A model generated the notes under the pieces. That model saw nothing but the letters and a program-made list of their open reading frames with translations, ran no database searches and was not told where the DNA came from. A DNA stretch of 64,000 nucleotides from assembly GCA_021788095.1 (NCBI GenBank), contig JAJYLB010000006.1, positions 1 to 64,000 of the forward strand, written 5' to 3'. This document shows, in pieces, positions 855-27,884 of this stretch (position 1 is the first letter of the stretch; each line of letters begins with the position of its first letter). A program made the translations under genes and the position numbers. The stretch is from Acidobacteriota bacterium. GTDB lineage: Bacteria > Acidobacteriota > Terriglobia > Acidiferrales > UBA7541.

Positions 855-2657
855 GTGGACCTCGACGAAAAAGTCTCTTCCCTGCCCTTCGAGCCGGGTG
901 TGTACATTTTCAAGGATGCCTCGGGCACGATCCTCTATATAGGCAAGGCGCAATCGCTGCGCCACAGGGTGCGATCGTACTTCGCGGGCTCGCGCGCCCT
1001 CGACGCCAAGACCGGCTCGCTCGTGCGGGAAGTGGCCGACCTCGAGACGATCGTCGTGGATAACGAAAAAGAGGCGCTCGCGCTCGAAAACCTGCTCATC
1101 AAACGCCATCGGCCGAAATTCAATATCCTGCTTCGCGACGATAAGACCTATCCCTTCCTCCGCTTTTCCGCCGCGGAAAAGTATCCACGCGTCTACGTCA
1201 CTCGCCGGCTCGTGCAGGATGGCTCGCTCTATTTCGGGCCGTACTTCCCCCACAATCTCGCCTATCGCGCCGCGAAGTTCATCAACAAGTATTTCGGGGT
1301 TCCTTCCTGCCGCTGCGATCTCTCGAAACCCCATAACCGGCCCTGCCCCGGCATGCCCATCGGCCGCTGCCTCGGCCCCGCCATGCCGGGCGGAGCAAGC
1401 GACGAGCGGTACGCCGAAGCGGCTCACGACGCGCGCCTGTTTCTCGAAGGGCGGCGGCAAGACCTGGCGCGGAGCGTGAAGGAGCGCATGGCTCGCGCGG
1501 CGGAAGAGGAGCGATTCGAGCTGGCCGCGGGCTATCGCGACCTGCTGCGCACGCTCCAAGAGCTGGAAGAAAAACAGAAGATGGCGGCGGCCCGGGGCGA
1601 CGATACCGATGTGCTCGGGTTCCACGCCGAGCCGCCGCTCGCCGCGGCCAATTTGTTTCACTTGCGCGGCGGCCAGGTGGTGGACCGGCGCGACTTCTAC
1701 TGGGAGGATCTGGAAGAGTTCGCGCCCGCCGAATTCGCTTCCTCTCTGCTCAAGCAACTCTATCTGGACGCCGCGTACCTGCCGCACGTCATCCACCTCC
1801 CCGTCGAAATCGAAGACCGCGAGTTGCTCGAAGAGATGCTCGGCGAACGCGCCGGACGGAAAGTGGAAATTCACGTCCCGCAGCGCGGCTCGAAGCACCG
1901 GTTCCTCGAGTTGGTGGAGAGAAACGCCCGGCACTCGTTCGAGCAGCGGTTCCGCATGCTTCGGCCGGACTCGGAAGCCATCGGCCCCGCCATGAGCGAA
2001 GCCTTGGGGCTCGCCGCCGCCCCTCGGCGAATCGAATGCTTCGATATCTCCCACATCCAGGGGTCGGATACGGTGGCGTCGATGGTGGTCTGGGAAGCCG
2101 GCCGAATGAAAAAAGCCGACTACCGGAAATTCCTGATTCGCGGCGACGCGGGCAACGACGATTTCGCTTCGATGCGCGAAGCGGTAGGCCGCCGCTACCG
2201 GCGCATCCGCGCGGAAGGTCGGGCGATGCCCGATCTCGTCCTGATCGACGGCGGCGTGGGACAACTCCATGCGGCCGCCGAAGCGCTCGCCGCGCTCGGC
2301 GGGCCGCTCCCACCTTTAGCCTGCATCGCCAAGAAAGAGGAGATCGTCACCGTCCTGGGCCGCGAAAGCCAGCCGATTGCCCTCGACCACCATTCCCCCA
2401 TCTTGCATCTCATCCAGCAGATTCGCGATGAAACGCATCGCTTCGCCGTCACCTATCACCGCCGGCGCCGCGCTCGCCGCACCTTGCGCAGCGAGCTCGA
2501 AGAGATCCCCGGCGTGGGCCAGGCGTCGGCGCGCAAGCTCCTGGGCCATTTCGGCAGCGTCGCCAATCTTCGGAGCGCCAGCCTCGCCGAGATCGCGCGC
2601 GTCCTCCCCGCTTCCCGCGCCGAACTCGTCTTCCAGCGTCTTCGCGAGCGCCGCTGA
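855..2657 (+). CDS. uvrC: Excinuclease ABC subunit C
   Basis: UvrC makes the two incisions around a DNA lesion during nucleotide excision repair, after UvrA and UvrB have located the damage. At 600 residues it has the usual length. An N-terminal GIY-YIG nuclease domain is visible (EPGVYIFKDASGTILYIGKA, residues 13-32). A UVR motif that contacts UvrB lies near residue 205 (ERMARAAEEERFELAAGYRD). The RNase H-like endonuclease domain carries CFDISHIQG and LVLIDGG, and a C-terminal helix-hairpin-helix carries EEIPGVGQASARKLLGHFG. The start is the GTG at 855. The gene is complete. Confidence 0.97.
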   Translation: MDLDEKVSSLPFEPGVYIFKDASGTILYIGKAQSLRHRVRSYFAGSRALDAKTGSLVREVADLETIVVDNEKEALALENLLIKRHRPKFNILLRDDKTYPFLRFSAAEKYPRVYVTRRLVQDGSLYFGPYFPHNLAYRAAKFINKYFGVPSCRCDLSKPHNRPCPGMPIGRCLGPAMPGGASDERYAEAAHDARLFLEGRRQDLARSVKERMARAAEEERFELAAGYRDLLRTLQELEEKQKMAAARGDDTDVLGFHAEPPLAAANLFHLRGGQVVDRRDFYWEDLEEFAPAEFASSLLKQLYLDAAYLPHVIHLPVEIEDRELLEEMLGERAGRKVEIHVPQRGSKHRFLELVERNARHSFEQRFRMLRPDSEAIGPAMSEALGLAAAPRRIECFDISHIQGSDTVASMVVWEAGRMKKADYRKFLIRGDAGNDDFASMREAVGRRYRRIRAEGRAMPDLVLIDGGVGQLHAAAEALAALGGPLPPLACIAKKEEIVTVLGRESQPIALDHHSPILHLIQQIRDETHRFAVTYHRRRRARRTLRSELEEIPGVGQASARKLLGHFGSVANLRSASLAEIARVLPASRAELVFQRLRERR

Positions 2658-2759
2658 GGCTCTCCGGGGGTTCACGCCGACCTCGCATCTCATCGCGACC
2701 AAGGGACTCCCGGTCAGCCCGCGTGCAAATCGCGCGCGCCGGAGCCGCCCTAAGCCCGT

Positions 2760-2781
2760 GGTATCATCGGCACCTGATACC
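2760..2781. promoter_or_regulatory. Inverted repeat upstream of the AAA-PIN module
   Basis: Perfect 7-bp arms GGTATCA and TGATACC are separated by 8 bases, about 20 bases before the ATG at 2802. The position fits an operator for a self-regulated two-gene module. No regulator gene lies next to it, so this is inference. Confidence 0.4.
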
Positions 2782-2801
2782 CTGCGGCGCGAGGGAAAAA
2801 C

Positions 2802-4139
2802 ATGAGATGTTACGTGTACCTCGATAATTTTCGCGGTTTCAGAAATACCCGAATACCCATCACGGACGTGAACTTCCTGGTCGGCCAGAACAGCACGGGG
2901 AAGACCTCCACCCTTGGGCTCATGAAGCTCATCTCCACCCCGCGGTTTTTCTACGCGTCCCCCGAGCTCTCGGACGAGGAGGTTACCTTCGGACATTTCT
3001 CTGATATGGTCAGCGCTCACTCGAGCGACAGGACGTATTTCCGAGTTGGGCTCGCCTGGGAGCGGCGCGACAGGGGAGACAGCGAGCCAGCCGGGCTGGG
3101 TTGGTTGGCTACGTTCGTCGAGAGGGACGGGCTCCCCCAACTCGAGAGTTTCACCTTCTACGACGGCAAGCTCGAGAGATCCATCCGGTACGAAGGCGAC
3201 GAGATCCTCTACGAAGCCGCCTCTGGCCCGATTCTCTCTTCCCCGTCGGCCGTCCTGGACAGCCGCCTGCCCGCATGGGTCGAGAAGCACGCCCGGCGTG
3301 ACGGAGACTTTGCCAAACTGTCCCGACCAAAGGGCCTCCCTCCCAGGCTCCCGCTCTTTATCGCCTTGTCGATTATCCCGGTCCCCGCGCCGCAGGACGC
3401 CTCCGGGGATCGGCCGCCGTCTCCGAGCAGCGAACTTCCGTCACTGCTGCCAGACGTTTTCCCCACCCCCGGCGTAACCTGGATTGCCCCCATCCGCACG
3501 AGGCCCAACAGGACCTACGACGAGCTCACACTGGCCTACTCCCCGGAGGGGGGGCACACCCCGTACCTGATCCGCCGGATGCTGAGGTCCCAGGCCGCGG
3601 CGACCCGCTTCCACGACCTGATGAAGCGGTTCGGGAGGGCGAGCGGCCTCTTTCAGGACGTGAGGATCAAGGCCTTCGGCCACTCTGCGACGGCACCCTT
3701 TGAGGTGGACGTCCTGCTTGACGCTAAGCCCCTGAACCTCAGCACGGTCGGATACGGCGTCTCCCAGGCGCTGCCCGTCCTCGTGGAGCTCCTAGCCCGC
3801 GGCAAGGGATCATGGTTCGCCATCCAGCAACCCGAGGTCCATCTGCACCCCTGTGCCCAGGCCGCCCTCGGGGATTTATTCTTCGAGATGGCCTCGACGA
3901 ACAAGATGGTGCTCCTCGTGGAGACCCACAGCGACTACGCCTTGGACCGGTTCCGCATGAACTACTACGACTGCAAGACCCAGCCACCTGAGAGCCAGGT
4001 ACTGTTCTTTGAACGCCGCGACCGGCACAACGTCGTCACGCCGGTCCCGATCGGAAGGGACGGAAAGCTCCCCGCAGACCAGCCGCCGGCCTACCGCGAC
4101 TTTTTCCTAAAAGAGCAACTTAGGCTCCTGGGTGTTTAG
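2802..4139 (+). CDS. AAA/ABC-type ATPase (OLD/AAA_21-like), putative defence
   Basis: A 445-residue SMC/OLD-like ATPase. The Walker A motif is at residues 28-36 (GQNSTGKTS), within the N-terminal half-site typical of AAA_15/AAA_21 proteins (LDNFRGFRNTRIPI). The C-terminal half has the signature-like LSTVGYGVSQALPVL, a Walker B region FAIQQPEVHLHP, and the switch histidine in VETHSDYALDRF. The position before QPE is Q where many relatives have E. The ATG at 2802 follows GAGGGAAAAAC. A PIN nuclease gene follows 6 bases after the stop, so the two are surely co-transcribed. Frequent AGG and AGA arginine codons contrast with uvrC and suggest transfer. ATPase plus nuclease pairs of this form are common in phage defence (PARIS and OLD-type systems), but I do not recognise this exact pair. 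Confidence 0.8.
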   Translation: MRCYVYLDNFRGFRNTRIPITDVNFLVGQNSTGKTSTLGLMKLISTPRFFYASPELSDEEVTFGHFSDMVSAHSSDRTYFRVGLAWERRDRGDSEPAGLGWLATFVERDGLPQLESFTFYDGKLERSIRYEGDEILYEAASGPILSSPSAVLDSRLPAWVEKHARRDGDFAKLSRPKGLPPRLPLFIALSIIPVPAPQDASGDRPPSPSSELPSLLPDVFPTPGVTWIAPIRTRPNRTYDELTLAYSPEGGHTPYLIRRMLRSQAAATRFHDLMKRFGRASGLFQDVRIKAFGHSATAPFEVDVLLDAKPLNLSTVGYGVSQALPVLVELLARGKGSWFAIQQPEVHLHPCAQAALGDLFFEMASTNKMVLLVETHSDYALDRFRMNYYDCKTQPPESQVLFFERRDRHNVVTPVPIGRDGKLPADQPPAYRDFFLKEQLRLLGV

Positions 4140-4145
4140 GCCGCC

Positions 4146-4619
4146 ATGTGCTTGGTCATCGACACCTGCTGCATCGCCAGCCTGCTCAACCCCCACGACA
4201 GAAATCACGACCAATTTACCCCCGTGCTGGCCTGGATAGCCAGCGGGAAGGGCAGGATGATCTACGGGGGAACGAAGTACGCTCGCGAACTTCGCACGCT
4301 CGCCCGGTACACGCCCGCCATCGCCGAATTCACAAGGAGCGGACGTGTGGTTAAGCTTGAGGACGCCCAGGTGGATGCGGTCGCCCGGCGGGTACGGCAA
4401 TTGGTGAACGACAGGAGAATGGACGACGAACACTTAATTGCGATCATGATAGTCTCCGGGTGCCGCGTGATCTGCACGAACGATAACAGGGCGATCCGCT
4501 ACCTGAAGATGCGGAATCTCTACGCGCATCACAAGAGAAAGAGGCCGAGAATCTACCGGTCCCTGCGCAACGCCCACCTGTGTTCAGACGCCAACCTTAT
4601 ACCCGCCTGCCGGCGATGA
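4146..4619 (+). CDS. PIN-domain ribonuclease, partner of the AAA ATPase
   Basis: A 157-residue PIN-like protein. The N-terminal strand CLVIDTCCIASLL holds the first acidic residue (D6). Later acidic residues appear in GTKYARELRTL and in RRMDDEHLIAIMI, followed by the typical ICTNDNRAIRYL strand. PIN domains cut RNA using Mg2+ or Mn2+. There is no antitoxin-like gene beside it; the only partner is the upstream ATPase, 6 bases away, which probably gates its activity. The C-terminus is basic (HHKRKRPRIYRSLRN). As with the ATPase, AGG arginine codons are frequent. Confidence 0.78.
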   Translation: MCLVIDTCCIASLLNPHDRNHDQFTPVLAWIASGKGRMIYGGTKYARELRTLARYTPAIAEFTRSGRVVKLEDAQVDAVARRVRQLVNDRRMDDEHLIAIMIVSGCRVICTNDNRAIRYLKMRNLYAHHKRKRPRIYRSLRNAHLCSDANLIPACRR

Positions 4620-4723
4620 GATCTCGCGCGCCCAGCCCGCCGCGGGGGCCTAGCACCACACGCCAGCCTTCTCTATCATCCCGTTAAACCTGTCGCGCCC
4701 GCAGGAGTCGCTCGCCCAGCCCT

Positions 4724-5281
4724 TTATCGCGACCTGCGCGAGTTGGTCTTTTGCGCCGCCTTCCTCACCGTCTTTTTCATCCGGTTCCCGCCCGCCCAAT
4801 ACAAGCTGATCTCGTGCCCGTCGGGATCGTTGATGTAGGCGTGCCGCCAACCCCAAGGCATCATCGCCGGCAGCTTGGTGATGTAGAAGCGCTTCTGCTG
4901 GAGCCGGCGGCAGAAATCGTCCAAGTCGCGAATCTCGAAATAGAGGCGCACGCCATCGCTCAGAACCGAATCACTCGCACCTGCCAGGTGCAGGGCGATC
5001 GTCCCGTCGCCGCCCGGAGCCCGCAGCCGCGCGTAAAGCAACTGCTGCTCGTAGCGAAAATCTTCGATGAGCTTGAACCCGAGTAAATCGCGGTAGAAAC
5101 CCAGCGCGCGCTCGACGTCCTTCACGTAGATCATGGCGTGGTTGAACGTCAGCTTCTCCCCCTCTGCGGCGGCGGGGGACCGCTCCGCGCGTGGCTGGGC
5201 TCTCTTCGTGGCCGGTCGCCTTGCCGCGCGACGTACTGCGGCCTGCTTCTTTGGCGTCTTACCTCGCGCTGGCCGTTTCAT
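4724..5281 (-). CDS. VOC-family (glyoxalase-like) protein with basic tails
   Basis: The protein is 185 residues from the ATG at 5281, which follows the strong ribosome site GGAGGAGGTGCGC. Longer readings would run through tRNA-Ala and are rejected. A vicinal-oxygen-chelate fold occupies about residues 50-165 (HAMIYVKDVERALGFYRDLL, then NDPDGHEISLYWAG), with metal-ligand candidates at the H and E positions. The first 45 residues are Lys/Arg/Ala-rich (RPARGKTPKKQ) and the C-terminus is basic (KKTVRKAAQKTNSRRSR). Such tails are odd for a metabolic enzyme and hint at nucleic-acid or membrane binding. The substrate is unknown. Confidence 0.8.
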   Translation of the reverse strand: MKRPARGKTPKKQAAVRRAARRPATKRAQPRAERSPAAAEGEKLTFNHAMIYVKDVERALGFYRDLLGFKLIEDFRYEQQLLYARLRAPGGDGTIALHLAGASDSVLSDGVRLYFEIRDLDDFCRRLQQKRFYITKLPAMMPWGWRHAYINDPDGHEISLYWAGGNRMKKTVRKAAQKTNSRRSR

Positions 5282-5362
5282 GCGCACCTCCTCCTTCTGC
5301 TCCGCTCCCTTTGACCCCCGCCGCAAGCCGGTGCTATAAGGAAGGTGATCAATCTCACCGGT

Positions 5363-10841: not shown

Positions 10842-11193
10842 GGGGGCGAAACGGTTTCGACGGAAGTTCGAGCTGTCGGAAGGCATGCCGGCCTCCACTT
10901 GTCCGTCATCGAGTGGAAAACGAAAACTGCCAATCCACAATTGGCTCTGGCTGCCTAATTAAAGGCTAGCCCGTCTCCTCAGGCTTCGCCCATGGGCCTG
11001 AGATGAGGCGTCGCACAGTGGGCTGGCTGTTCGGTCTCGGCCCGTGACCGGGCGGCGAGAATTATCGGGCTAGTCGCCGGCGTTTCTTGCCGGTTCTGAT
11101 CGTCGGCGGCGAACCCAATGGAATCGGATACGCATGTAGTCTTCCGATGGCAAGGCTTTTCGGACGGGGGTTCGACTCCCCCCGCCTCCACCA
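10842..11193 (+). ncRNA. ssrA: tmRNA (transfer-messenger RNA)
   Basis: tmRNA rescues stalled ribosomes and tags the unfinished protein for proteolysis. The 5' acceptor strand GGGGGCG pairs with CGCCTCC before the encoded ACCA end, and the conserved GAAACGGTTTCGAC follows the 5' end. The T arm GGGGG-TTCGACT-CCCCC is visible at 11166-11182. The tag frame at 10929-10958 reads GCC AAT CCA CAA TTG GCT CTG GCT GCC TAA, giving ANPQLALAA after the charged Ala. The length is 352 nt. The 3' end is also the integration site of the island that begins here. Confidence 0.97.
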
Positions 11194-12341
11194 CTCTTTC
11201 TTCTTGATGCGAACGAACTTACGCGCGCTGCGTTCTCCGTGTACCCGCCGTGTACCCTTCGTATCGGTTCATGGGTCCCCCAAGTCCGGCGAACATCGGC
11301 CTCCAACTGTTCCTGGCGCGCTCTTACCCAAGGGGCATAGTGCTTCTCAGTGATCCGCACGCTTTGGTGACCCAAGAGAACCGACACCCGCTCAATCGGC
11401 ACACCGGCGAGCAGGAGCTCAACCGAAAACGTATCCCTGAACCGGTGAGCGTGACCATCTGGCACTCCGGCCAGGACGAGCAATTTTTTCAGGCTCCGTT
11501 GCCAATCTCCTACGGCACTCTTTGGCTTTGATAATCCGGTCCAAAAGAAGTACGTGCTCGCCGGAATCGCACTCAGAGCCTCGATCACGTATGGAGGAAG
11601 GGGACAATAAACGGGAGTGCCTGTCTTGGCGGTGTATAGGAAGAGCTTGTCGCCCTGAATGCGTTTGCGGCTAAGCGTGACCGCGTCACGGATGCGCAGC
11701 CCACTGTAGCGAAGGAGCAAAACGAGGGCACGCAATCGCACGGCGTTTTCTTTGTTGCGATAATCATCACAGGCGGCAAGGATGGCCGCGAACTCTTCTC
11801 GCGTGAACGGTGAAGTCGGCGGCTCCGTGATCTTCGGAGGTTTGAGATGGCTCGCCGGATTCGCCGCAATCCACCCAGATTCATGCACGAACCGAAAGAA
11901 TGCTCGGAAAGCTTCAAGCTTCTTGCGCGCCGCAATGTTCTTGTTTGGCCACGACGCACGGAATCGGCGCACCCAATCTATATCTAATTCCGTGATCCAT
12001 GTGAGCCCTTCGGCCGTGGCGAAGGCTTGAAGTTGACGAAACAGAAGACGGTATTTGTAGAGCGTGGGCTCGCGCAGGTTGCGAGCCTCAGCGTCAACTA
12101 GAAACCTTTCGCACGCCTCCTTTAGGGTCAGGGGCTTCGGCTTTTCGACGTGCTGGCCCTCAGCCTCCCATTGCCGAACAAGCTCTTGTGCTCGCTGCCA
12201 ATCGCGCAGTCGAAGCGACTTGCGCATCTCAATTCCGTTGAGCGAACCATCAACCCATATAGGGCACAAGCAACGCCGGTACCCGCGCCCCTCGGTTCGC
12301 TGCTTGCAGTTCTTTCGATGACGCCTATAGATGGTCAGCAT
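11070..12341 (-). CDS. int: Tyrosine recombinase/integrase of the ssrA island
   Basis: A phage-type tyrosine recombinase (423 residues) that catalyses integration and excision at ssrA. An N-terminal Cys-rich segment (HRKNCKQRTEGRGYRRCLCP) is followed by a SAM-like DNA-binding domain and the catalytic domain. Active-site residues: Arg in RYSGLRIRDAVTLS, Lys near LFLYTAKTGTP, HxxR in GHAHRFRDTFSVELL, H/W and Tyr in LLGHQSVRITEKHYAPWVRAR. The gene reads across the attachment core, so its last ~34 residues (after GGGGG) are antisense ssrA codons supplied by the host. The excisionase-like gene lies 12 bases upstream. Confidence 0.95.
   Translation of the reverse strand: MLTIYRRHRKNCKQRTEGRGYRRCLCPIWVDGSLNGIEMRKSLRLRDWQRAQELVRQWEAEGQHVEKPKPLTLKEACERFLVDAEARNLREPTLYKYRLLFRQLQAFATAEGLTWITELDIDWVRRFRASWPNKNIAARKKLEAFRAFFRFVHESGWIAANPASHLKPPKITEPPTSPFTREEFAAILAACDDYRNKENAVRLRALVLLLRYSGLRIRDAVTLSRKRIQGDKLFLYTAKTGTPVYCPLPPYVIEALSAIPASTYFFWTGLSKPKSAVGDWQRSLKKLLVLAGVPDGHAHRFRDTFSVELLLAGVPIERVSVLLGHQSVRITEKHYAPWVRARQEQLEADVRRTWGTHEPIRRVHGGYTENAARVSSFASRRKSGGGGGSRTPVRKALPSEDYMRIRFHWVRRRRSEPARNAGD
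11173..11193. repeat. attL core (3' end of ssrA)
   Basis: A 21-bp direct repeat starting CGACTCCCCCC and ending CCTCCACCA, identical to 27885-27905. It lies exactly at the ssrA 3' end, so integration leaves a functional tmRNA. Confidence 0.92.
11238..11257. repeat. Left copy of the inner 20-bp repeat (integrase arm site?)
   Basis: GTGTACCC-GCC-GTGTACCC, 44 bases inside the left core. It is identical to 27781-27800, including the two preceding bases. The doubled GTGTACCC motif fits an arm-type binding site of the integrase, but this copy also encodes RVHGGYT near the integrase C-terminus, so a coding remnant is the alternative for the right copy. Confidence 0.5.
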
Positions 12342-12353
12342 TCGACAGCGCTC

Positions 12354-12599
12354 CTACGGGACTCCGGCCTTGGAACACAGACGCCGATGAACGCGTTCGA
12401 GCACGGATTGAGGAATCCGTAGCGTAACATACCGCCGCTTGCGGCGAGGATTTCGGTCGCCGATCACGAGCACGCCGGGCTCGTTCTCGAAAATTTCGCG
12501 GACCTTGTCGGCGCTCAGATTCCACATCTCAGCGATCTCGGCGACGGCGTAATGCCGCTCGACGGGCACTGAGGTTTCGAGTTGTGACAAAACAGCCAT
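12354..12599 (-). CDS. Excisionase-like winged-helix/HTH protein
   Basis: An 81-residue basic protein with a MerR/excisionase-type helix-turn-helix (HYAVAEIAEMWNLSADKVRE) followed by a wing-like segment (GVLVIGDRNPRRKRRYVTLR). Its size and its place directly before int suggest a directionality factor (Xis) that binds the att arms, or a regulator of int. It is divergent from the 12733 gene across a 130-base control region. Confidence 0.7.
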   Translation of the reverse strand: MAVLSQLETSVPVERHYAVAEIAEMWNLSADKVREIFENEPGVLVIGDRNPRRKRRYVTLRIPQSVLERVHRRLCSKAGVP

Positions 12600-12640
12600 G
12601 ACTTCGGACCGACCCCCGGATCTGGAGACCGCAACATCAC

Positions 12641-12676
12641 CTTGACAAGCTAGCCGAGTGGGTGTATTTTGTCAAG
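12641..12676. promoter_or_regulatory. Promoter inside an inverted repeat, xis/12733 divergent region
   Basis: TTGACA (12642-12647), a 17-base spacer and TATTTT (12665-12670) form a near-consensus rightward promoter. The same stretch is an inverted repeat, CTTGACAA...TTGTCAAG, with 20 bases between the arms, placing a TTGACA on the other strand too (partner TAGCTT after 17 bases). A dimeric repressor there would control both directions. Confidence 0.55.
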
Positions 12677-12732
12677 TGCGTTTCGAAACGACTAGCGCGG
12701 ATTGTATTTTGCGCCGAAACGGAGGCCAAGAA

Positions 12733-13863
12733 TTGACCGACAAGCCGCGACAGCAACAGACGCTCTCGCTGCGCATCAACGAAGGGCTCCGCGAGAGGCT
12801 GTACCGGGCGAAACAACTGGTGGCTTCGCGAACGGGAGAGGCAGTTTCGACCTCCGACATCGCGAAGCGGCTCCTCGAGTCCGCCCGCGAGGATCGCCTG
12901 GAAGTCGTCGATCTCATGGCGGACCCGACGAGGACCCTTCTGCAGATTCGTCGGAAGGGTGAAGCCGACCTTGTTCTTTCCAAGGCGGAATGGACGGTCC
13001 TTGTCTATTTCGTTCAGCAGGGGCTCGAAGCCTTCTCGGGCGATACGCCGAGTCGAGTTTCCTCCGAGTCTCTCATTGCGGTCCTAGACGCGTTTCTGGC
13101 TGCCTACGGGGTGCGGAGAGGGCCCTCCCGGTGGGACGAGTATTATTTGGGCAATCTCCCGCTCGATTGCCGGCCGCCCAAGGCGAAAGGTTTGGAAGGT
13201 ACCGAAAAGGCCACGATGGAAATCGTGCGACGAACGGTGACCGAGACGCGGCGGTGCCTCGGTGAGCCGCAAACCAAGCATGCGCCTATGCTGGCAGGCC
13301 GGAATCTCAATGTGCTGTTAGAGGACGAGCATCTCGCCGACACCGATGCCTTGGACCGGGTTCTGCGCCCTTTCTGGCCGGCGCTTTGGCGACTCGCCGC
13401 CCGCGGGCACTACTACCTCAAACAGAAGCCGTTGCGCGAGCCGATCAAGATCACGGAGGAGATGTTTAAACCCGCGATTCCCCCTCAGACGGAGGCCGGG
13501 TTCACCTTGTCCTTTGCGCGGGGTGAGGGCAACGATTTTTCGGTGCTGCTCAGCTTTCCCGGACCCAGGGCGCTGCAATACCCCATAGGTGACTACCCGA
13601 GGCTGGCCGAATTTCGGGCCATGCTCGCCGCCCTCGATCCCGAGAAGGCCCGGGCGCAGTGGAAGGGCGAGCACTTCTTCGGCTATCAGCTGGACGGAGA
13701 GGAGGGGGTCGAGTTTTCCTTCCGCGCGCGCGAAAACGGGATTACGGTCACCTTCTCCGAGAAGGAGTGGAAAGCGGTCCGGGAGCTATTCCGCCGCGCC
13801 TGGGAGGTGCCCGATGTGCGCCTTGCCTGGGATGGGCTCATCCTCGAATACGGTGAGCTATGA
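12733..13863 (+). CDS. Island protein of unknown function
   Basis: About 376 residues from the TTG at 12733, chosen because GGAGG lies 7 bases upstream; an in-frame GTG at 12658 would precede it but overlaps the promoter. The N-terminal 60 residues look like a DNA-binding regulator (QTLSLRINEGLRERLYRAKQ, TGEAVSTSDIAKRLLESA). Two later segments resemble each other: GEADLVLSKAEWTVLVYFVQ near the start and GITVTFSEKEWKAVRELFRR near the end, each a short beta stretch followed by a helix, suggesting an internal duplication. I do not recognise the family. The position first in the mobilization cluster suggests a replication or regulatory role. Confidence 0.65.
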   Translation: MTDKPRQQQTLSLRINEGLRERLYRAKQLVASRTGEAVSTSDIAKRLLESAREDRLEVVDLMADPTRTLLQIRRKGEADLVLSKAEWTVLVYFVQQGLEAFSGDTPSRVSSESLIAVLDAFLAAYGVRRGPSRWDEYYLGNLPLDCRPPKAKGLEGTEKATMEIVRRTVTETRRCLGEPQTKHAPMLAGRNLNVLLEDEHLADTDALDRVLRPFWPALWRLAARGHYYLKQKPLREPIKITEEMFKPAIPPQTEAGFTLSFARGEGNDFSVLLSFPGPRALQYPIGDYPRLAEFRAMLAALDPEKARAQWKGEHFFGYQLDGEEGVEFSFRARENGITVTFSEKEWKAVRELFRRAWEVPDVRLAWDGLILEYGEL

Positions 13864-14041
13864 GGAGCGCTGCTTCGCAGCGGGAGCGCATTGACACGTC
13901 ACCCCGGAACGGGTGCTGTATAGCAACCAAGGTTGCTATATGGGAACCTCAACAAAGTGCAGGGGTTACGCTCCCTTCGTCTCCCGGTGGGCGTCTGGCG
14001 GTCTCCATATGGGAACTTGTTGATTCCACTCGGTGAATCCG
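13864..14041. promoter_or_regulatory. Hairpin-rich intergenic region; candidate oriT/control region
   Basis: Three inverted repeats crowd this gap: CGCTGC-TTC-GCAGCG, CACCC-CGGAAC-GGGTG, and the perfect TAGCAACC-AA-GGTTGCTA (13921-13938). ATATGGGAAC occurs twice as a direct repeat (13938-13947 and 14007-14016). A TTGACA is at 13891. It directly precedes mobC-like, coupling-protein and relaxase genes, where oriT is usually found. No nick site can be assigned by eye. Confidence 0.4.
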
Positions 14042-14386
14042 ATGCCCGCGGCTCGAACCAAATCCGTCAGCACCAAGGTCACCGAGGAGGAATACGCGCG
14101 CCTCGAAGCCCTGGCCGGCGAGCGGACGATCAGCGAATGGGCTCGCGATGTTTTGCTCGGGGCCGCCAACCCTAATCCGGCCGAGCACGCGATCATGGCC
14201 GAGCTGCTCGCGTTGCGGACGATTTTGCTGACCCTCCACTTCGCCGTTTCCCATGGGCAGACCTTTTCTGCTCAGGAGATGCGGAACCTCATCGAGCATG
14301 CGGACGAGGGGAAGTTGGAGAAGGCTCGGCAACGCCTGGAAGACGCAGCAAGGAGCGTGGGACATGAAACAGCAGTGGGGACGTGA
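14042..14386 (+). CDS. MobC-like relaxosome accessory protein
   Basis: A protein of about 114 residues (ATG at 14042; a GTG at 14033 is also possible). The N-terminal half matches the plasmid mobilization protein pattern: TKSVSTKVTEEEYARLEALA and GERTISEWARDVLLGAANPN, a ribbon-helix-helix followed by the SEWxRDxLL motif. A leucine-rich helix (MAELLALRTILLTLHFAV) and a charged tail follow. MobC-type proteins open DNA at oriT for the relaxase. It overlaps the coupling-protein gene by 23 bases. Confidence 0.72.
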   Translation: MPAARTKSVSTKVTEEEYARLEALAGERTISEWARDVLLGAANPNPAEHAIMAELLALRTILLTLHFAVSHGQTFSAQEMRNLIEHADEGKLEKARQRLEDAARSVGHETAVGT

Positions 14387-16355
14387 ACCGGACGCGGGGA
14401 CCTGGCCGAGTGAAAAGCCGGTGTGGGTCATCGGGGTGATCTGCATCGCCTTGGCGAGCGTGCTCGCCATCACCTATTACCGTTACGAGCGAGTGTGGAC
14501 GCCGCTCGAACGCTTATACCTGAAAACCTACGTTGCAACGCAAGCGGCCGCACCCTTGCGCGCGGACGGCTGGTACACGCTTCTTACGGTGCTCACACCC
14601 AAGGGTCGGGCGCTTGCGCTGGACCGCGACGTGGAGCCGTTCACAACCCAGCAAGGCGAGAGCACCTTTGCTCTGTCGGCACGAGCCTTGAAGCTGGGTT
14701 ATCGCCGGCTCGAATGGCAGCGGGCGCAATATCACAATGCCAAGCTGCATGGCTTTCTTGGCTATTGGATCTATCAGAATCGGACGCTTCTTGATTTGGC
14801 GAAACCGGGACTCTTGGGCGGCCTGATCGTGCTCGTCGTAGGCCTCGTTGCCGTGACCCCGAAAGAGAGGGCGCGCGTCAAGCAACGCAGGGAGGGGCGA
14901 AGGCTCAAAGGGCCGGAACTGGTGACGCCCGCCGTTTTCAACCGGCGCACGCGCTCGGATGGAATCGCCTTTGAACTGAGGCGGACCAGCCTGGACAGGC
15001 TGCTCGGAAGAACACCGTTCGTGCGCATCCCCCGCGATCTCGAAGCCAGCCAGTTCCTCGTCATGGGCGATTCCGGCAGTGCCAAGAGCTCCTTGGTCCG
15101 CCAAATCTTGCAGCACATCGAGCGGTGCGGAGACATCGCCATCGTCTACGACCCAGCGAAACCCGCCGATTACACGCCTTACTTCTTTAACGTAGCGCGC
15201 GGCGACCTGATCCTTAACCCCTTCGACAAGCGCATGCCCTACTGGACCCCAGGAGACGAATTGCGGCAGGGGGCGGACGCGCTCACGCTGGCCATGTCGC
15301 TCTTTCCCGATCGGTACAATGAACAGCCCTTCTTTGTGAAAGCCCCGCGAAAAATCTTTGCGTACTTGCTCGGATTCCATCCGACGCCGGAAGAACTGGT
15401 GTGGTGGATGTCGCACCCGGAAGAGATCCAGCGGCGAGTCGCGGGTACCGAATATGCGGCCATGATTAGCCCAGACTCGCCCGGGCAACGCGACGGCGTT
15501 GTTGGCTCGCTGAATCTGGTGGCCGACGCCTTCCGCGCGCTGCCCACCGAAGCCGAAACAACACGTCGCTGGAGCACGCTGGCGTGGGCGATGGACCCGT
15601 GCGGGTGGCTGTTCTTCAAATCGGCTCCCGACACACGCGAGCGCCTCGCCCCGCTCTTTAGCCTCTGGCTTGACATGCTTGTCCTTCGGGCCATGAATCG
15701 GGGCCCGAGCAAGCGTCGCATATGGTTCATCTTCGACGAGCTGGCCACCTTGCAGCGATTGCCGCAGCTGCACACGGCGATCACCGAGAACCGCAAGTCG
15801 AACAACCCGATTGTGCTTTGCTTCCAGGGGCGCAGCCAGATTGAAGCGCGCTACGGACGCGACGCGGAAGCCATGATGTCCCAGCCCGCGACCAAAATCT
15901 TCCTGTGCACCAGCGAGCCGCACGCGGCGAAATGGATCAGCGAGGCCATCGGGGAGCAAGAGATCGAGCGGATACGGGAGAGCCGGTCGAGCGGCCAATA
16001 CCCGCAATCGCGCAAATCGACGAGTTGGAGTCTCGAGCGCGAGATCGTTCCGCTCGTAATGCCGAGCGAGATCACAGGGCTGGAGAGGGGGCACGGGTAT
16101 CTGAAGTGCCGCAACCTTGTCGTCAGGTTGAGCCTGCCGAAGGTCGAGCTTCCCGTCCGAGGGCCTGCATACGTCGAGCGTCCGGCGCTCCCCGCGCCCA
16201 GGGCGAAGCCGAAGGCGGCGGCCGCGACAGGCGCAAACGCACCGACAAGCCAGGCACCGGGTGAACAAAAGCTGGCACAGAGCGAGTTGAAACAGGGCGC
16301 AGAGCAGAATATCCAGCGCCGGCCACTCGGCAAGGACCGGCAGGTTTTCGAATAG
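14364..16355 (+). CDS. Type IV secretion coupling protein (VirD4/TraD family)
   Basis: A 663-residue inner-membrane ATPase that presents the relaxosome to a conjugation pore. The ATG at 14364 gives MKQQWGREPD; earlier starts lie inside the mobC-like gene. Two N-terminal membrane segments are seen (VWVIGVICIALASVLAITYY and LLGGLIVLVVGLVAV). Walker A is at about residues 235-243 (GDSGSAKSS) and Walker B near 458 (RRIWFIFDELATL), followed by the Q-rich FQGRSQIEARYG typical of TraD. The C-terminal 90 residues are Pro/Ala/Lys-rich. A TraD/VirD4 identity is well supported. Confidence 0.92.
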   Translation: MKQQWGREPDAGTWPSEKPVWVIGVICIALASVLAITYYRYERVWTPLERLYLKTYVATQAAAPLRADGWYTLLTVLTPKGRALALDRDVEPFTTQQGESTFALSARALKLGYRRLEWQRAQYHNAKLHGFLGYWIYQNRTLLDLAKPGLLGGLIVLVVGLVAVTPKERARVKQRREGRRLKGPELVTPAVFNRRTRSDGIAFELRRTSLDRLLGRTPFVRIPRDLEASQFLVMGDSGSAKSSLVRQILQHIERCGDIAIVYDPAKPADYTPYFFNVARGDLILNPFDKRMPYWTPGDELRQGADALTLAMSLFPDRYNEQPFFVKAPRKIFAYLLGFHPTPEELVWWMSHPEEIQRRVAGTEYAAMISPDSPGQRDGVVGSLNLVADAFRALPTEAETTRRWSTLAWAMDPCGWLFFKSAPDTRERLAPLFSLWLDMLVLRAMNRGPSKRRIWFIFDELATLQRLPQLHTAITENRKSNNPIVLCFQGRSQIEARYGRDAEAMMSQPATKIFLCTSEPHAAKWISEAIGEQEIERIRESRSSGQYPQSRKSTSWSLEREIVPLVMPSEITGLERGHGYLKCRNLVVRLSLPKVELPVRGPAYVERPALPAPRAKPKAAAATGANAPTSQAPGEQKLAQSELKQGAEQNIQRRPLGKDRQVFE

Positions 16356-16361
16356 CGAGAC

Positions 16362-19133
16362 ATGCTGACGATCTCCAAACCGCTCAGTGCCGGCCAGGCC
16401 CAGACCTATCACCGCGAGGAATTTCAGGATGCGCGAAGCAACTACTACACCGAGGGTGACCGGATCACGGGGGAGTGGCACGGCAGGCTCGCGGAGCAGT
16501 GGAGATTGCAAGGCGGAGTTGAAGAGGAGCAGTTCCGCCGACTGAGCGAGGGGCAACACCCACTCACCGCCAAGCAATTGGTGCGTCATCAACCGGCGCG
16601 GGAATACGTAGACGAACACGGCGAGAAGGTGAAAACGATGGAGCACCGCGCCGGATGGGATGCAACTTTCTCGGCTCCCAAGAGCGTCTCGCTCACGGCG
16701 CTTGTCGGCGGCGACGACCGCGTGCGGCAAGCGCATCAGGAGAGCGTGAGCGTGGCGCTCGACGAGCTGGAACGCTACGTCCAGGCCCGGCTTGGCGGGA
16801 ATCTCCCGGCAGAGACAACGGCAAAGTGGATAGCGGCGAGATTCGAGCACGACAGCGCCAGGCCGGTGGAGGGGTACGCGGCCCCGCAATTGCACACGCA
16901 CGTGGTCTTTTTCAACCTCACGGAAACGGCGGACGACCAGGTTCGCCCCGTTCAACCACACGAGCTCTACAAAACGCAGCAGTATGCGACGGCCGTCTAT
17001 CGGTCGGAGTTGGCCCATCGGCTCAAAGAACTTGGCTACGAGATTGAGCGTGGGAGGAGCGGCCAGCCGGAGATCAAGGGCTACAGCAAGGAATATCTCG
17101 AAGCCTCCAGCCCCCGTCGCCGCCAGATCGAAGACCGTTTGGCGCAGGAGAACCAGCGAGGTGCGGCTGCCGCGCAGATCGCCGCCCACCAGACGCGGGA
17201 GGGGAAGCTCGAACTCTCGCACCGGGAGATGCAGGCACGCCATCGAGGGATGGCAGAGACCTTCGGGAATCAGCCCCACCGCGCGATCCGGGCAGCAAGG
17301 GAAAGAACGCGACAAATCGAGCCCGGCGTGAAGCAGGAAAGGGCGCGGTCAGCCGTGACCTTTTCGAGGGACAGAAATCTGGAGCGCGAAGCCGTGGTCG
17401 ATGAGCGAGACCTATTGCGCGATGCACTCAAGCGCTCCATGGGTGAGGCGACCCTTGGAGAAGTGAAGGCTGAGTTCGAACGGCGAGCACAGTCCAGAGA
17501 GTTCATCGAGCGAGCCAGCCACGGGGCTGCCCGCGCATTCACCACGAGAGAAATGATCGACTACGAGCGGGACACGATCCGCGTCATGCGGGAGGGCCAG
17601 AATAGACACAACGCCCTGGTGCGCGTCGAGACTTGGCGGGAAATTGATAAAGCGCACCCACGCCTGAGCGAGAACCAGCGGCGGGTCGTTCAACAAATCC
17701 TTTCGAGCGGCGATCAGGTGACGGCACTGGAAGGCGTAGCGGGCGCAGGAAAGACGACTTCGCTCGCCGCGATTCGCGAGGCCGCCGAGCGTGAGAGGTA
17801 CAAGGTCCAAGGCTTCGCGCCCACTTCGCGAGCAGCGCATAAGCTCGCCGAGGCTGGAATCGAGTCGAGCACGCTGCAACGGCACCTAACGCGAACCGAA
17901 GACCCTGTGGAAAGCCGCAAGCGGTTGTACGTCCTCGACGAATCGAGCCTTGCAAGCACGAACCAGATGAACCAGTTCCTCCACCGCTTGCGGGAGCAAG
18001 ACCGCGTATTGTTGGTAGGCGATACGCGCCAGCACCAGGCCGTCGAGGCCGGAACGCCCTACCAGCAGCTACAGGAAGCCGGAATCCAGACCGCCCGACT
18101 CGACGAGATCCTCCGGCAGAAGGACCCGGCCCTCAAGGAAGTCGTAGAGCATCTCTCGCGGGGCCAGGTGCGGGAGGCGATGGAGAAACTCGACGCGCAA
18201 GGCCGCGTGCATGAAATCGTGGGGCCGAGTGAGCGGCTGGCGGCAATCGCCCGAGACTATGCCGCGAGACCGGAAGGAACGCTTGTGGTCTCACCCGACA
18301 ACGAATCGCGCGCCAGGATCAACGAGGCGATCCGCCGGGAGATGCAAACTCGGGGCTTGGTTGACACGAGTGAATACAGGCAGCGAGTCCTTGTGGCGCG
18401 GCAGGAGATCACCGGAGCCGACCGGCAGTGGGCCGCGCAATACGAGCCTGGCGATGTGGTCCGGTACACGCGGGGAAGCAAGACGCATGGCATCGAGCCC
18501 GGAGAATACGCCCGCGTCGAACGAGCGGGTGAGCAGGAGAATCTGATCGCCGTCAAACGCGGGAACGGCGAGTTGGTCACCTACGATCCGCGCCGACTGC
18601 ACGGCGTAACCCTCTACCGCGAGACGGAGCGGACATTCAGCCAAGGTGACCGCGTGCAGTTCACGGCCCCGAATCGGGAGCACCGCGTTGCCAACCGCGA
18701 TCTGGGAACCTTAGAGATAATCGACGCGAGGGGCAATCTCGAAATACGCCTCGACTCGGGCCGCGCACTCGCCTTCAACATGAATGACAATCCGCATCTT
18801 GACCACGGATATGCGGTCACGAGCCACAGCAGCCAGGGTCAGACTGCCGACCGCGTGTTGATCCACGTGGACACCGCGCAGGCGGGAGAAAAGCTCATCA
18901 ACCAGCGGCTCGCCTACGTGGCCGTCTCCCGTGGCCGATACGATGCGCAGGTCTGTACCAACGACAAATCGCTCTTGACCGAGCAACTCTCGCGCGATGT
19001 GCCGCACCAATCCGCCATTGAGTCACGGCAGCGTCACACAATGGGCGCGCAGGAGGAGCCGAAGATCGAACGCGCCTCTTCCCGCCAACTGGCGGAACAA
19101 TCAGCGGAACACGGATTGAGTATGCGGCGCTGA
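16362..19133 (+). CDS. MobF-family relaxase-helicase (TrwC/TraI-like)
   Basis: This 923-residue conjugative relaxase nicks oriT, stays bound to the 5' end and unwinds the strand. The relaxase domain has MLTISKPLSAGQAQTYH, the YY pair in DARSNYYTEGD (candidate catalytic tyrosines), GWDATFSAPKSVSL, and the metal-binding histidines in PQLHTHVVFFN (about residue 178). The helicase domain has Walker A GVAGAGKTTS (about 458-467), VLDESSLAST, and the C-terminal GYAVTSHSSQGQTADRV and YVAVSRGRY motifs of RecD-like helicases. It lies 6 bases after the coupling-protein gene. Confidence 0.95.
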   Translation: MLTISKPLSAGQAQTYHREEFQDARSNYYTEGDRITGEWHGRLAEQWRLQGGVEEEQFRRLSEGQHPLTAKQLVRHQPAREYVDEHGEKVKTMEHRAGWDATFSAPKSVSLTALVGGDDRVRQAHQESVSVALDELERYVQARLGGNLPAETTAKWIAARFEHDSARPVEGYAAPQLHTHVVFFNLTETADDQVRPVQPHELYKTQQYATAVYRSELAHRLKELGYEIERGRSGQPEIKGYSKEYLEASSPRRRQIEDRLAQENQRGAAAAQIAAHQTREGKLELSHREMQARHRGMAETFGNQPHRAIRAARERTRQIEPGVKQERARSAVTFSRDRNLEREAVVDERDLLRDALKRSMGEATLGEVKAEFERRAQSREFIERASHGAARAFTTREMIDYERDTIRVMREGQNRHNALVRVETWREIDKAHPRLSENQRRVVQQILSSGDQVTALEGVAGAGKTTSLAAIREAAERERYKVQGFAPTSRAAHKLAEAGIESSTLQRHLTRTEDPVESRKRLYVLDESSLASTNQMNQFLHRLREQDRVLLVGDTRQHQAVEAGTPYQQLQEAGIQTARLDEILRQKDPALKEVVEHLSRGQVREAMEKLDAQGRVHEIVGPSERLAAIARDYAARPEGTLVVSPDNESRARINEAIRREMQTRGLVDTSEYRQRVLVARQEITGADRQWAAQYEPGDVVRYTRGSKTHGIEPGEYARVERAGEQENLIAVKRGNGELVTYDPRRLHGVTLYRETERTFSQGDRVQFTAPNREHRVANRDLGTLEIIDARGNLEIRLDSGRALAFNMNDNPHLDHGYAVTSHSSQGQTADRVLIHVDTAQAGEKLINQRLAYVAVSRGRYDAQVCTNDKSLLTEQLSRDVPHQSAIESRQRHTMGAQEEPKIERASSRQLAEQSAEHGLSMRR

Positions 19134-19222
19134 GCGTTCAATCACTTTGAATCGGCAGGTACAGACGGCCGGGAGAGAATTCAGCAGCGTGTATTTGTTG
19201 TTTTTCAAGGGGTTAAAACACT

Positions 19223-19246
19223 GAAGCCGACCGCGAGGTCGGCTTC
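19223..19246 (+). terminator. Strong hairpin after the relaxase gene
   Basis: GAAGCCGACC-GCGA-GGTCGGCTTC, a perfect 10-bp stem with a 4-base loop, about 90 bases past the relaxase stop. The U tract is weak (GCTTCCTG), so it may act with Rho or as a processing or stability element. Confidence 0.55.
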
Positions 19247-19346
19247 GCTTCCTGCCCACCGAGGGGCAGGGGGGATACACAAGGTATTATACTCCCTTGC
19301 CGATGGGTGTCAACGGCTTCATTCGGCTTTTGGTTAAGGAGATTTC

Positions 19347-19967
19347 GTGGCCAGGGTCAGCGTTTACATCGATGGATTCAATCTCTACTACGGTGCTTTG
19401 AAGGGAACACCGTACAAATGGCTAAATTTGGCTCGCCTTTGCCAGGCTCTCCTGCCGTCTGACGCCATTCAGGAGATCAAGTATTTCACCGCGAGGGTGA
19501 GCGCCAGACCGAGCAAGCCGACTTCGGCTCACGATCAAGGGTTGTACATTCGGGCGCTTCGGACAATCCCGAACCTGACGATCCAATACGGCCATTTCCT
19601 AACGCACACGGTCCCGATGTATCTGTCAGCGGTCACTCCCCCGCAAAGAGTCTGGGTTGAAAGAACGGAAGAGAAGGGCTCGGATGTCAATCTCGCCTCA
19701 CATCTCGTCAGGGACGCCTTCCGCAAGCAATTCGAAGTCGCGGTGCTCATATCGAACGATTCCGATCTCGCGGAGCCGGTGCGGATCGTTTCGCAGGAAC
19801 TCCGCATGCCGGTTGGGATTCTTAATCCCCACCAGCATCACAGCAAGGAGCTGCAACGGTACGCCACGTTCGTGAAGCGAATCCGGCAGGGCCACCTGCT
19901 TGCCAGCCAATTCCCGGCATCCCTCCAAGACGCCAAAGGGTCCTTTTCAAAACCGATTGCTTGGTAG
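19347..19967 (+). CDS. NYN-domain (PIN-like) ribonuclease
   Basis: A 206-residue NYN/LabA-type protein, a metal-dependent nuclease fold related to PIN domains. Acidic residues lie where the family has them: D in VSVYIDGFNLYYG, EKGSDVNLASHLVRDA and VLISNDSDLAEPV. The GTG at 19347 follows AAGGAGATTTC. It is the first cargo gene after the mobilization module and lies 200 bases before the TIR-like gene. The target RNA is unknown; a defence or toxin role is inferred from context. Confidence 0.85.
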   Translation: MARVSVYIDGFNLYYGALKGTPYKWLNLARLCQALLPSDAIQEIKYFTARVSARPSKPTSAHDQGLYIRALRTIPNLTIQYGHFLTHTVPMYLSAVTPPQRVWVERTEEKGSDVNLASHLVRDAFRKQFEVAVLISNDSDLAEPVRIVSQELRMPVGILNPHQHHSKELQRYATFVKRIRQGHLLASQFPASLQDAKGSFSKPIAW

Positions 19968-20167
19968 CCATGGGCCTGGGGCGAAGACGCCTGAAACTCC
20001 TCGCCCCGCCGAGCCCGTTCTCAAGGTTCAAGGTCCCGCCTCTGGGTTCGCCTGCTCGAGAAGGCGCACCCGTCTGAAGGTATCGACGGGCCCAACCGCT
20101 TGTCGCTGGGCCGCTGGGCCGCTCGCTCCTGGACGACCTGTGAGAAAATCGGACAGAGGAAGGCGCC

Positions 20168-21238
20168 ATGGACACGCTCGTGACACTGGGCGGTGAGTGC
20201 TTTGAAGCAGAGTTCAAACGCAAGATGCCCATGCAGGACCGGATTGGATTTTGCCGCGTTTTCTCACTACGCGACCTGAAGGAGAACCGGCCCGGGTTTC
20301 AGGTCTCCGTCTTCTGGCCTGACCGTGACGGGGCGACGGACCCTGAATTTGATTCCAAAGTAGAAGAGACCACTCTCAACGTGATCAGGCGCGCTTTTGA
20401 CGATGGGACCCTCAGCTTCGACATGCCCCACGACCCACAGCACTACCAAGACCTCGTCCCCAACGCGGAGACAGAACGGCCAGCGGCCAGCAGAGACAAC
20501 GTTCGCCGTTTCATAAGAGAAAAGGCCTTCTGGGTCGGGTTTCGGGTGAATCCCAAGGTGGGCAAGTACCTCGTGCAGTTCGACAGCCAGATTGATCTGG
20601 ATTACTTGCAGGTCGGCAGGGAGAGAATCCTCCAGGAGGTATGGCTATTGAGGGAACAGGGTTACCTTGCGAAGGATGAGAACTGGCCGGCCGGTGCCGG
20701 CCGCCCGACCGCAAAGCTCATCGACGAGTACGAGGTCGAGAGACGCGGCCAACAACGAGAATCGTTCCCGCGCGACCTCGGGCCAGAGGGGACAGGGAGT
20801 TCAGTGTTCGTTGTACACGGCCACGACGAAGGGATGAGGCAATCGGTGGCGAGGTTTTTGGAAAAGCTCCATCTGCAGCCGATCATCCTGCATGAGCAGC
20901 CTAGCTTGGGGAGAACGCTGATCGAGAAATTCGAGCGCCACTCAAACGTTCGATACGCCGTCGTCCTTCTCTCCCCCGATGATCTGGGAGCCTGCGCTTC
21001 GACTCCGAACGAGCTTAAGCCGAGGGCGCGCCAGAATGTCGTCTTGGAGCTGGGCTACTTCATTGGCAAACTGGGCCGCTCAAACGTTTGTGCTCTCCTC
21101 AAGGACGATGTGGAGCGACCCTCCGACCTAGTTGGCTTGGTTTATGTCCCCTATGAGGGAGACCAGGGGAACTGGAGGATCGGCCTCGCGAGGGAGATCA
21201 AGGCCGCCGGTATCCGTGTGGACATGAACCTTGTCTGA
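20168..21238 (+). CDS. TIR-like (CAP12/Pycsar-type) nucleotide-binding effector
   Basis: This 356-residue protein has a C-terminal TIR_like domain (about residues 215-350): SVFVVHGHDEGMRQSVARFL, QPIILHEQPSLGRTLIEKFE, VVLLSPDDLG, RARQNVVLELGYFIGKLGR. Relatives of this fold act as NADase effectors in anti-phage signalling (CBASS/Pycsar, TIR-STING). The N-terminal 200 residues are not recognised and may sense the trigger. There is no cyclase gene beside it, so it is not an obvious CBASS operon. The ATG at 20168 follows AGAGGAAGG. It is convergent with the first FRG gene. Confidence 0.82.
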   Translation: MDTLVTLGGECFEAEFKRKMPMQDRIGFCRVFSLRDLKENRPGFQVSVFWPDRDGATDPEFDSKVEETTLNVIRRAFDDGTLSFDMPHDPQHYQDLVPNAETERPAASRDNVRRFIREKAFWVGFRVNPKVGKYLVQFDSQIDLDYLQVGRERILQEVWLLREQGYLAKDENWPAGAGRPTAKLIDEYEVERRGQQRESFPRDLGPEGTGSSVFVVHGHDEGMRQSVARFLEKLHLQPIILHEQPSLGRTLIEKFERHSNVRYAVVLLSPDDLGACASTPNELKPRARQNVVLELGYFIGKLGRSNVCALLKDDVERPSDLVGLVYVPYEGDQGNWRIGLAREIKAAGIRVDMNLV

Positions 21239-21286
21239 ACCCGGATTCCCATTTCGGGCTGGCCTTCGGAATCTTCCGATCGTCGC

Positions 21287-23485: not shown

Positions 23486-23581
23486 ACGCCGGCACTGCTT
23501 CCTCGGAGGTAAACCCACGCTGGGGCGTCGCGTTCGTCGTATGCGGTGCAGTGATTCTCGTGAGCTCGCAGGAGACGGCAT

Positions 23582-26738: not shown

Positions 26739-26863
26739 TCAGGCTCGGAGAGGCGATCAAGCCGTGATTGACACTCAGAGTGTCACAATTTTGCCTTACC
26801 AAAGGGACGCACGCCTTAGTGCTGAGGCGCGCTGCCCGGTCTGCCAAAGAAAGGCCGTACCTG

Positions 26864-27577: not shown

Positions 27578-27780
27578 GTTCTCGCTCCTCTTCAAATGGG
27601 GGTTTAGCTCGCCGCCCATTGTAGATGCACTGGGACGGCGTCGGCGATCCGCGCTGCCGTGTCCGCGCTGCCGTGAGGAGTGGCTGTTACGGTCACCTGG
27701 CGGCGCGCCGTCGCGACATTCTCAATCAGGAGGAGGTCCGAGATATATCAAGCCAAACCAGATTTACTCGTTCGAAATCG

Positions 27781-27800: not shown

Positions 27801-27884
27801 GACTTGGGTGGATTAGGTGTTTTTGCGGTTTTCCCCGTTTAATGGAATCAATATCTTATGCGCCTTCAATGAGGCTCAGAATTC

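What the first reader, a model, noticed from the sequence alone, without database searches (positions are those of the whole stretch)
2802..4619. AAA ATPase-PIN nuclease two-gene module with signs of transfer
The genes are 6 bases apart, and their frequent AGG and AGA codons and different style from uvrC suggest acquisition. ATPase-gated nucleases are common in phage defence; a PIN nuclease partner would be a less described variant. The Walker B context QQPEVHLHP has Q where E is usual.
Basis: partly seen in the sequence, partly recalled or inferred. Interest (0 to 1): 0.6.

Follow-up and report, generated by a model that had tools for sequence, protein, structure and literature searches.

The report
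Conserved ATPase plus PIN-nuclease gene pair
A small two-gene cassette pairs an SMC/OLD-like ATPase, whose ATP-cleaving residues are naturally replaced, with a toxin-like RNA-cutting enzyme; it occurs across many bacterial phyla and some archaea and is probably a triggered self-poisoning defence, a new variant of a kind already known.

Summary
Window 2802-4139 encodes a 445-aa ABC/OLD-type ATPase (not AAA+); 6 nt later, 4146-4619 encodes a 157-aa PIN domain of VapC fold. The pair is a real, old unit. Of the 80 best ATPase relatives kept from 84,980 species genomes, 78 have the same PIN family directly downstream (gap -4 to +18 nt), across 17 named phyla including two archaeal ones. Every PIN match found by profile in 345 Bacteroidota and 299 Pseudomonadota genomes lies next to the ATPase. 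ATPase and PIN distances correlate (r 0.84). The PIN acidic tetrad is kept. The Walker B acids are replaced by QQ almost without exception, including in loci not found through that motif, so ordinary ATP hydrolysis is doubtful. The cassette is absent from four same-genus genomes, is AGA/AGG-rich, and one copy sits behind the lysis genes of a phage contig. Best reading: the ATPase senses a trigger and restrains the PIN RNase, as in PARIS or Septu. Closest known: the published class of OLD-ABC ATPases paired with PIN endoRNases, and PADLOC candidate HEC-03, whose partner differs. Immediate neighbours are not clearly defence-enriched, and no function was tested. New variant of a known kind.

The parts
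2802..4139 (+). ABC/OLD-type ATPase gene (445 aa)
2883..2909 (+). Walker A / P-loop GQNSTGKTS (residues 28-36; K34)
   Evidence: K34 in 82 of 82 aligned relatives with a residue there; counterpart of Ts OLD K34 (PMC7049728 passages)
3825..3851 (+). Degenerate Walker B and D-loop QQPEVHLHP (residues 342-350)
   Evidence: Q342 82 of 83, Q343 83 of 83; aligns with Ts OLD E276-E277-P-E-M-Y-L-H283-P
3921..3935 (+). H-loop ETHSD (residues 374-378; H376)
   Evidence: H376 83 of 83; aligns with Ts OLD H310
4146..4619 (+). PIN-domain nuclease gene (157 aa)
4161..4163 (+). PIN acidic residue D6
   Evidence: 80 of 80 aligned
4287..4289 (+). PIN acidic residue E48
   Evidence: 78 of 80
4425..4427 (+). PIN acidic residue D94
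   Evidence: 80 of 80
4482..4484 (+). PIN acidic residue D113
   Evidence: 70 D and 9 E of 80
2658..5362 (.). Interval between uvrC and tRNA-Ala that holds the pair and a VOC-like gene; only 146 and 150 nt long in two same-genus genomes

Best explanation
A toxin-controller dyad that works like PARIS, Septu/retron PtuAB or an AAA-neutralised toxin-antitoxin pair. The ABC/OLD-type ATPase forms a nucleotide-bound multimer that binds the PIN ribonuclease and keeps it inactive. A trigger, most likely a phage product, changes the ATPase; the PIN enzyme is released or activated, cuts host RNA (tRNA or rRNA, as VapC enzymes do) and stops growth, which limits phage spread. Because both Walker B acids are glutamine, the nucleotide would be a lasting structural or sensing ligand rather than fuel. 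Shown here: pairing, order, co-inheritance, folds, conserved PIN acidic tetrad, conserved P-loop/D-loop/H-loop with QQ at Walker B, sporadic spread. Inferred: complex formation, inhibition, trigger, RNA target, phage defence.
For: PIN adjacent in 78 of 80 loci, gap -4 to +18 nt. PIN profile searches: 9 of 9 matches in 345 Bacteroidota genomes and 2 of 2 in 299 Pseudomonadota genomes adjoin the ATPase; exactly one PIN match in each of 20 of 20 carrier genomes. ATPase/PIN distance r 0.84, largest of 2000 permutations 0.33; 29 of 70 splits shared. PIN acidic tetrad conserved and VapC fold. ATPase model matches a retron PtuA (Z 19.1), Septu PtuA (17.4), GajA (16.7) and the AriA-AriB complex (16.6) as well as SMC/Rad50 heads up to 19.8. 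Sporadic: 2 of 297 Acidobacteriota for the PIN; absent in 4 of 4 same-genus genomes. PIN absent or broken beside an intact ATPase in L004, L048, L064, L077, L106/L112 and L113. One copy lies behind tail-tip, endolysin and Rha genes of a 42-kb IMG/VR contig. Precedents: AAA D29 antitoxins neutralise nuclease toxins (PMC10440598, section 6 and passages); AriA sequesters AriB (PMC12409363, passages).
Against: Immediate neighbours are not clearly defence-rich: at most 15 of 141 neighbour genes hit a PADLOC model at E<=1e-15, against at most 9 of 140 control genes. No match of the PIN (window, L037 or L042) in 72,556 plasmids, nor of the window or L037 PIN in 50,697 phage records. One MAG locus, L022, has a stop codon inside the ATPase with an intact PIN. 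No complex was modelled and no activity tested. The pair AarT:AAA, a close analogue, gave no phage protection in an E. coli screen (PMC10440598 passage).
Confidence: 0.55

Rival explanations
1. Plain toxin-antitoxin/addiction cassette: the ATPase is only an antitoxin and there is no phage sensing; the cassette persists by being harmful to lose.
For: Stands alone among unrelated neighbour genes, no conserved third gene; one copy per genome in 20 of 20; overlapping or near-overlapping genes; PIN decays beside an intact ATPase, not usually the reverse.
Against: A 445-aa ATPase is a costly antitoxin; its nearest PADLOC models all belong to defence systems or candidates (NsnB, HEC-03B, AriA, PDC-M55A). 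The gene order, controller first, fits either reading.
Confidence: 0.22
2. Restriction-like effector: the ATPase recognises invading nucleic acid and directs the PIN nuclease to cut it, without harm to the host.
For: ATPase fold of SMC/Rad50 type; some OLD-ABC partners are DNases (PMC12839542 passages).
Against: PIN fold nearest to RNA-cutting VapC toxins; no methylase or helicase partner is conserved; QQ Walker B argues against ATP-driven translocation.
Confidence: 0.13
3. Housekeeping RNA or DNA maintenance, for example with the neighbouring uvrC.
For: Pair lies next to uvrC here and next to a 35%-identical uvrC in L059.
Against: uvrC adjacency in only 1 of the 80 kept relatives; present in few genomes of a phylum; absent from same-genus genomes.
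Confidence: 0.05

Closest known systems
OLD-ABC ATPases paired with PIN endoRNases in BREX neighbourhoods (PMC12839542, 2026; passages read)
   Same: Same two kinds of protein in one operon; read there as phage-sensing ATPase plus suicidal endoRNase
   Different: There reported as part of 594 taxa with alternative nucleases in BREX and related loci; this family is a stand-alone cassette with QQ at Walker B. Whether any of those 594 belong to this family could not be checked (its supplementary files were not read)
PADLOC candidate HEC-03 (HEC-03A + HEC-03B)
   Same: ATPase matches HEC-03B (2e-27); HEC-03A matches the small partner of sister ATPases with the motif VDTN...E...D
   Different: 0 of 77 PINs of this family match HEC-03A at E<=0.01; profile comparison of the two partners is not significant (probability 1.7); sister Walker B is EQPE or EEPE
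Menshen NsnB/NsnC
   Same: NsnB is the best PADLOC model for the ATPase (4.5e-34; 75 of 75 members at E<=1e-10)
   Different: No NsnC match for the PIN; Menshen also has a DUF262 gene needed for resistance (PMC10952713 passages), not seen as a conserved neighbour
PARIS (AriA/AriB) and Septu/retron PtuAB
   Same: ABC-head fold and a two-gene ATPase-nuclease plan
   Different: Nuclease is TOPRIM or HNH, not PIN; a PtuA sequence keeps Asp-Glu at Walker B (22bu)
VapBC toxin-antitoxin
   Same: PIN fold and acidic tetrad
   Different: Partner is a 445-aa ATPase, not a small DNA-binding antitoxin

Membership tests
OLD-ABC + PIN endoRNase dyads (PMC12839542) | OLD/ABC-type ATPase adjacent to a PIN nuclease | tested here: met
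   78 of 80 loci; folds
OLD-ABC + PIN endoRNase dyads (PMC12839542) | Located within or beside BREX | tested here: inconclusive
   No BREX model among the PADLOC hits of 141 immediate neighbours; wider surroundings not tested
HEC-03 (PADLOC) | HEC-03B-type ATPase | tested here: met
   2e-27 for the window, 75 of 75 members at E<=1e-10
HEC-03 (PADLOC) | HEC-03A-type partner | tested here: not met
   0 of 77 at E<=0.01
Menshen | NsnB ATPase | tested here: met
   4.5e-34
Menshen | NsnC partner | tested here: not met
   No NsnC match among 77 PIN members at E<=0.01
PARIS | TOPRIM effector AriB | tested here: not met
   Partner has PIN fold
VapBC | VapC-like PIN fold with acidic tetrad | tested here: met
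VapBC | Small VapB-type antitoxin beside the PIN gene | tested here: not met
   The adjacent co-oriented gene is the ATPase
AAA-neutralised toxin-antitoxin (NetFlax D29) | ATPase neutralises toxicity of the partner | not testable with these tools
   needs an expression assay
Canonical ABC/OLD ATPase | Acidic Walker B (D or E, then E) | tested here: not met
   QQ

The most novel reading that the evidence does not exclude
A widespread ATPase-PIN immune module whose ABC-type ATPase has given up hydrolysis altogether: nucleotide is held as a permanent structural cofactor, so that the switch is release of the PIN RNase by nucleotide loss, by a change in the cell's nucleotide pool, or by a phage protein, rather than by an ATP cycle.
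Probability: 0.3. Interest if true: 0.7.

Novelty: new variant of a known kind. Interest (0 to 1): 0.5.

Why it matters
It gives a clean, conserved family in which to ask what the ATPase of OLD/PARIS/Septu-like systems is for. Nature has replaced both the Walker B acid at the magnesium site (whose alanine change abolishes hydrolysis in Ts OLD; [quoted passage not shown] If the pair still works, hydrolysis is not needed for sensing. No PADLOC 2.0.0 model recognises this PIN family as such, so that tool would miss the system.

Tried and rejected
AAA+ reading of the ATPase: rejected, ABC-head fold. PIN toxin with an ordinary antitoxin: the PIN was never found away from the ATPase in the profile searches. 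QQPE as a search artefact (one search used [IFL]QQPEVHL as one seed): checked on the 17 loci that lack that seed; Q342 in 16 of 17 (L024 has E), Q343 in 17 of 17 (its printed stretch for L042 is a wrong match, one search shows QQ there). Profile-found members also read QQ (L101, L102, L105, L106; L103, L113; L187). Defence-island enrichment: tested on nearest neighbours only, no clear difference (neighbours over 900 aa were dropped, the greedy ORF caller may include shadow ORFs, and the PADLOC counts are of models, not proteins). att-like copy of the tRNA-Ala 3' end around the pair: none within 3 mismatches. Plasmid and phage records: no match. Viral structure library: no match at E<=0.001. 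HEC-03A-type partners as homologues of this PIN: not shown; the L114/L184 partners are (probability 95.6). A sigma-70 promoter-like site at 2600-4800: none found. Rows left out of some alignments as near-copies or incomplete: L033, L047, L067, L077, L079, L022; L048 and L064 have no PIN. Literature: the Menshen paper PMC12065111 and the ABC-ATPase classification (10.1093/nar/gkaa726) are not held; HEC-03 was not found by term search in the two PADLOC papers nor in a library search; PMC10568477 held none of the terms asked.

Full report
What is there. The window holds an ATPase gene at 2802-4139(+) and a PIN gene at 4146-4619(+), 6 nt apart. The ATPase matches Pfam AAA_15 and AAA_21 and, among PADLOC models, NsnB 4.5e-34, HEC-03B 2e-27, AriA 1.4e-21 and PDC-M55A 2e-20. 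The PIN matches Pfam PIN at 2.8e-4, below the curated cut-off, and no PADLOC model.

The pair is real. With a three-row ATPase alignment, 427 stretches in genomes of 84,980 species encode a relative, of which the best 80 were kept and examined. 78 of these 80 have a PIN ORF of one family directly downstream on the same strand, at -4 to +18 nt; L048 and L064 have none, and in L077 it is split over two ORFs. Some rows are near-copies (L032/L033, L046/L047; L079 is the same stretch as viral L087). The remaining 347 matches were not looked at and may include other ATPases.

Unseeded checks. A profile of 77 PINs found 9 matches in 6 of 345 Bacteroidota genomes; all 9 adjoin the ATPase, though two of the genomes (G297, G298) were already known, L104 is cut by a contig end, and L106 is a broken PIN beside an intact ATPase. 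In 299 Pseudomonadota genomes there were 2 matches (one, G302, already known), both beside the ATPase. In 297 Acidobacteriota genomes the single window PIN found itself and G050, also paired. Searching the same 345 Bacteroidota genomes with the ATPase profile, 8 places score 250 bits or more; 7 have the PIN (one disrupted) and one, L113, has none.

Folds. PIN model: mean pLDDT 96.6; best matches are VapC toxins, 5x3t_B Z 12.0 (rmsd 2.7 over 128) and VapC20 5wzf_B Z 10.8 (rmsd 2.8 over 122). D6, E48, D94 and D113 are conserved (80, 78, 80 and 70+9 E of 80). ATPase model: pLDDT 91.6; matches are SMC and Rad50 heads, retron and Septu PtuA, GajA and the AriA-AriB complex, Z 16.6 to 19.8, so it is an ABC/OLD-type head.

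Walker B. Position 342 is Q in 82 of 83 aligned ATPases, 343 is Q in 83 of 83, 345 is E in 83 of 83. The profile alignment to Thermus scotoductus OLD (6p74) pairs Q342-Q343 with E276-E277, H349 with H283 and H376 with H310 (residue numbers counted by me from that alignment). In that enzyme K34A, E276A and H310A abolish hydrolysis (PMC7049728, passages). The motif was one of two search seeds, but the 17 loci without the seed keep it (16 of 17 and 17 of 17). Sister ATPases read EQPE, EEPE, AQPE or SQPE. That hydrolysis is lost is an inference.

Evolution. The ATPase tree of 73 rows needs 30 phylum changes for 17 named groups, the least possible being 16; paralogy and mis-binned contigs may add to that. 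ATPase and PIN distances correlate at r 0.84 (largest of 2000 permutations 0.33), and 29 of 70 splits are shared, so the two genes travel together. In the window's own genus, 4 of 4 genomes lack the ATPase. In two of them uvrC and tRNA-Ala are 146 and 150 nt apart, against 2705 nt here, where the pair and a VOC-like gene lie between; in G663 the VOC-like gene lies beyond the tRNA, so this interval has been rearranged. AGA+AGG use supports foreign origin.

Context. Nearest neighbours of 77 loci (141 genes) hit 15 PADLOC models at E<=1e-15, each once, against 9 for 140 control genes taken from elsewhere on contigs of carrier genomes. No Pfam family recurs more than twice among them. So it is a stand-alone cassette and clear defence-island company was not seen. 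One copy, L086, lies near the end of a 42-kb IMG/VR contig behind genes whose phage relatives are annotated tail tip/tail protein, endolysin and Rha regulator, a place where prophages often carry accessory genes (recalled).

Wider kind. ATPases of sister groups are followed by other small proteins with a PIN-like N-terminus: L127 hits Pfam PIN_3 (6.6e-5); L114/L184 align with this PIN family (hhalign probability 95.6); L115, L116, L123 and L133 hit HEC-03A; L124 hits NsnC. For the HEC-03A group a PIN fold is suggested only by the DTN...E...D pattern; profile comparison did not show it. In print, OLD-ABC ATPases paired with HNH, REase or PIN nucleases were reported in 594 taxa of BREX and related loci (PMC12839542, passages). 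AAA 'D29' antitoxins that neutralise nuclease toxins were shown by experiment (PMC10440598, section 6 and passages); PIN-like partners are named there for other antitoxin hubs, not for D29, in the parts I read. PARIS AriA sequesters AriB (PMC12409363, passages).

Verdict. A genuine, old, mobile two-gene module; most likely a restrained PIN RNase under an ABC/OLD-type sensor. As a kind it is known; the fixed QQ Walker B and the distinct PIN family make it a new variant. Function is untested.

Noticed in passing
window 11070-27905: Likely integrated element at tmRNA: a tyrosine-recombinase-like ORF (11070-12341, -; named by eye) overlaps the end of tmRNA (10842-11193), and the last 21 nt of tmRNA (11173-11193) recur exactly at 27885-27905, bounding a region of mostly lower G+C with several AGA/AGG-rich ORFs.
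   Followed up: partly
L059:4088-5773: In a Spirochaetaceae genome the pair also lies directly downstream of a uvrC homologue (35% identity), as in the window.
   Followed up: no
L159:6850-6882 (G663): A 33-nt exact copy of the tRNA-Ala 3' end lies about 270 nt beyond the tRNA in a same-genus genome, as an attachment-site remnant would.
   Followed up: no
L114, L115, L116, L117, L123, L127, L133, L184, L185: Several distinct small PIN-like partner families sit behind sister OLD-type ATPases with EQPE, EEPE, AQPE or SQPE Walker B; a larger ATPase-PIN assemblage deserves its own survey.
   Followed up: partly
L004:1-1494 (-); L106; L077:6669-7132: PIN gene reduced to a 63-aa remnant, broken by stops, or frameshifted beside an intact ATPase.
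   Followed up: partly
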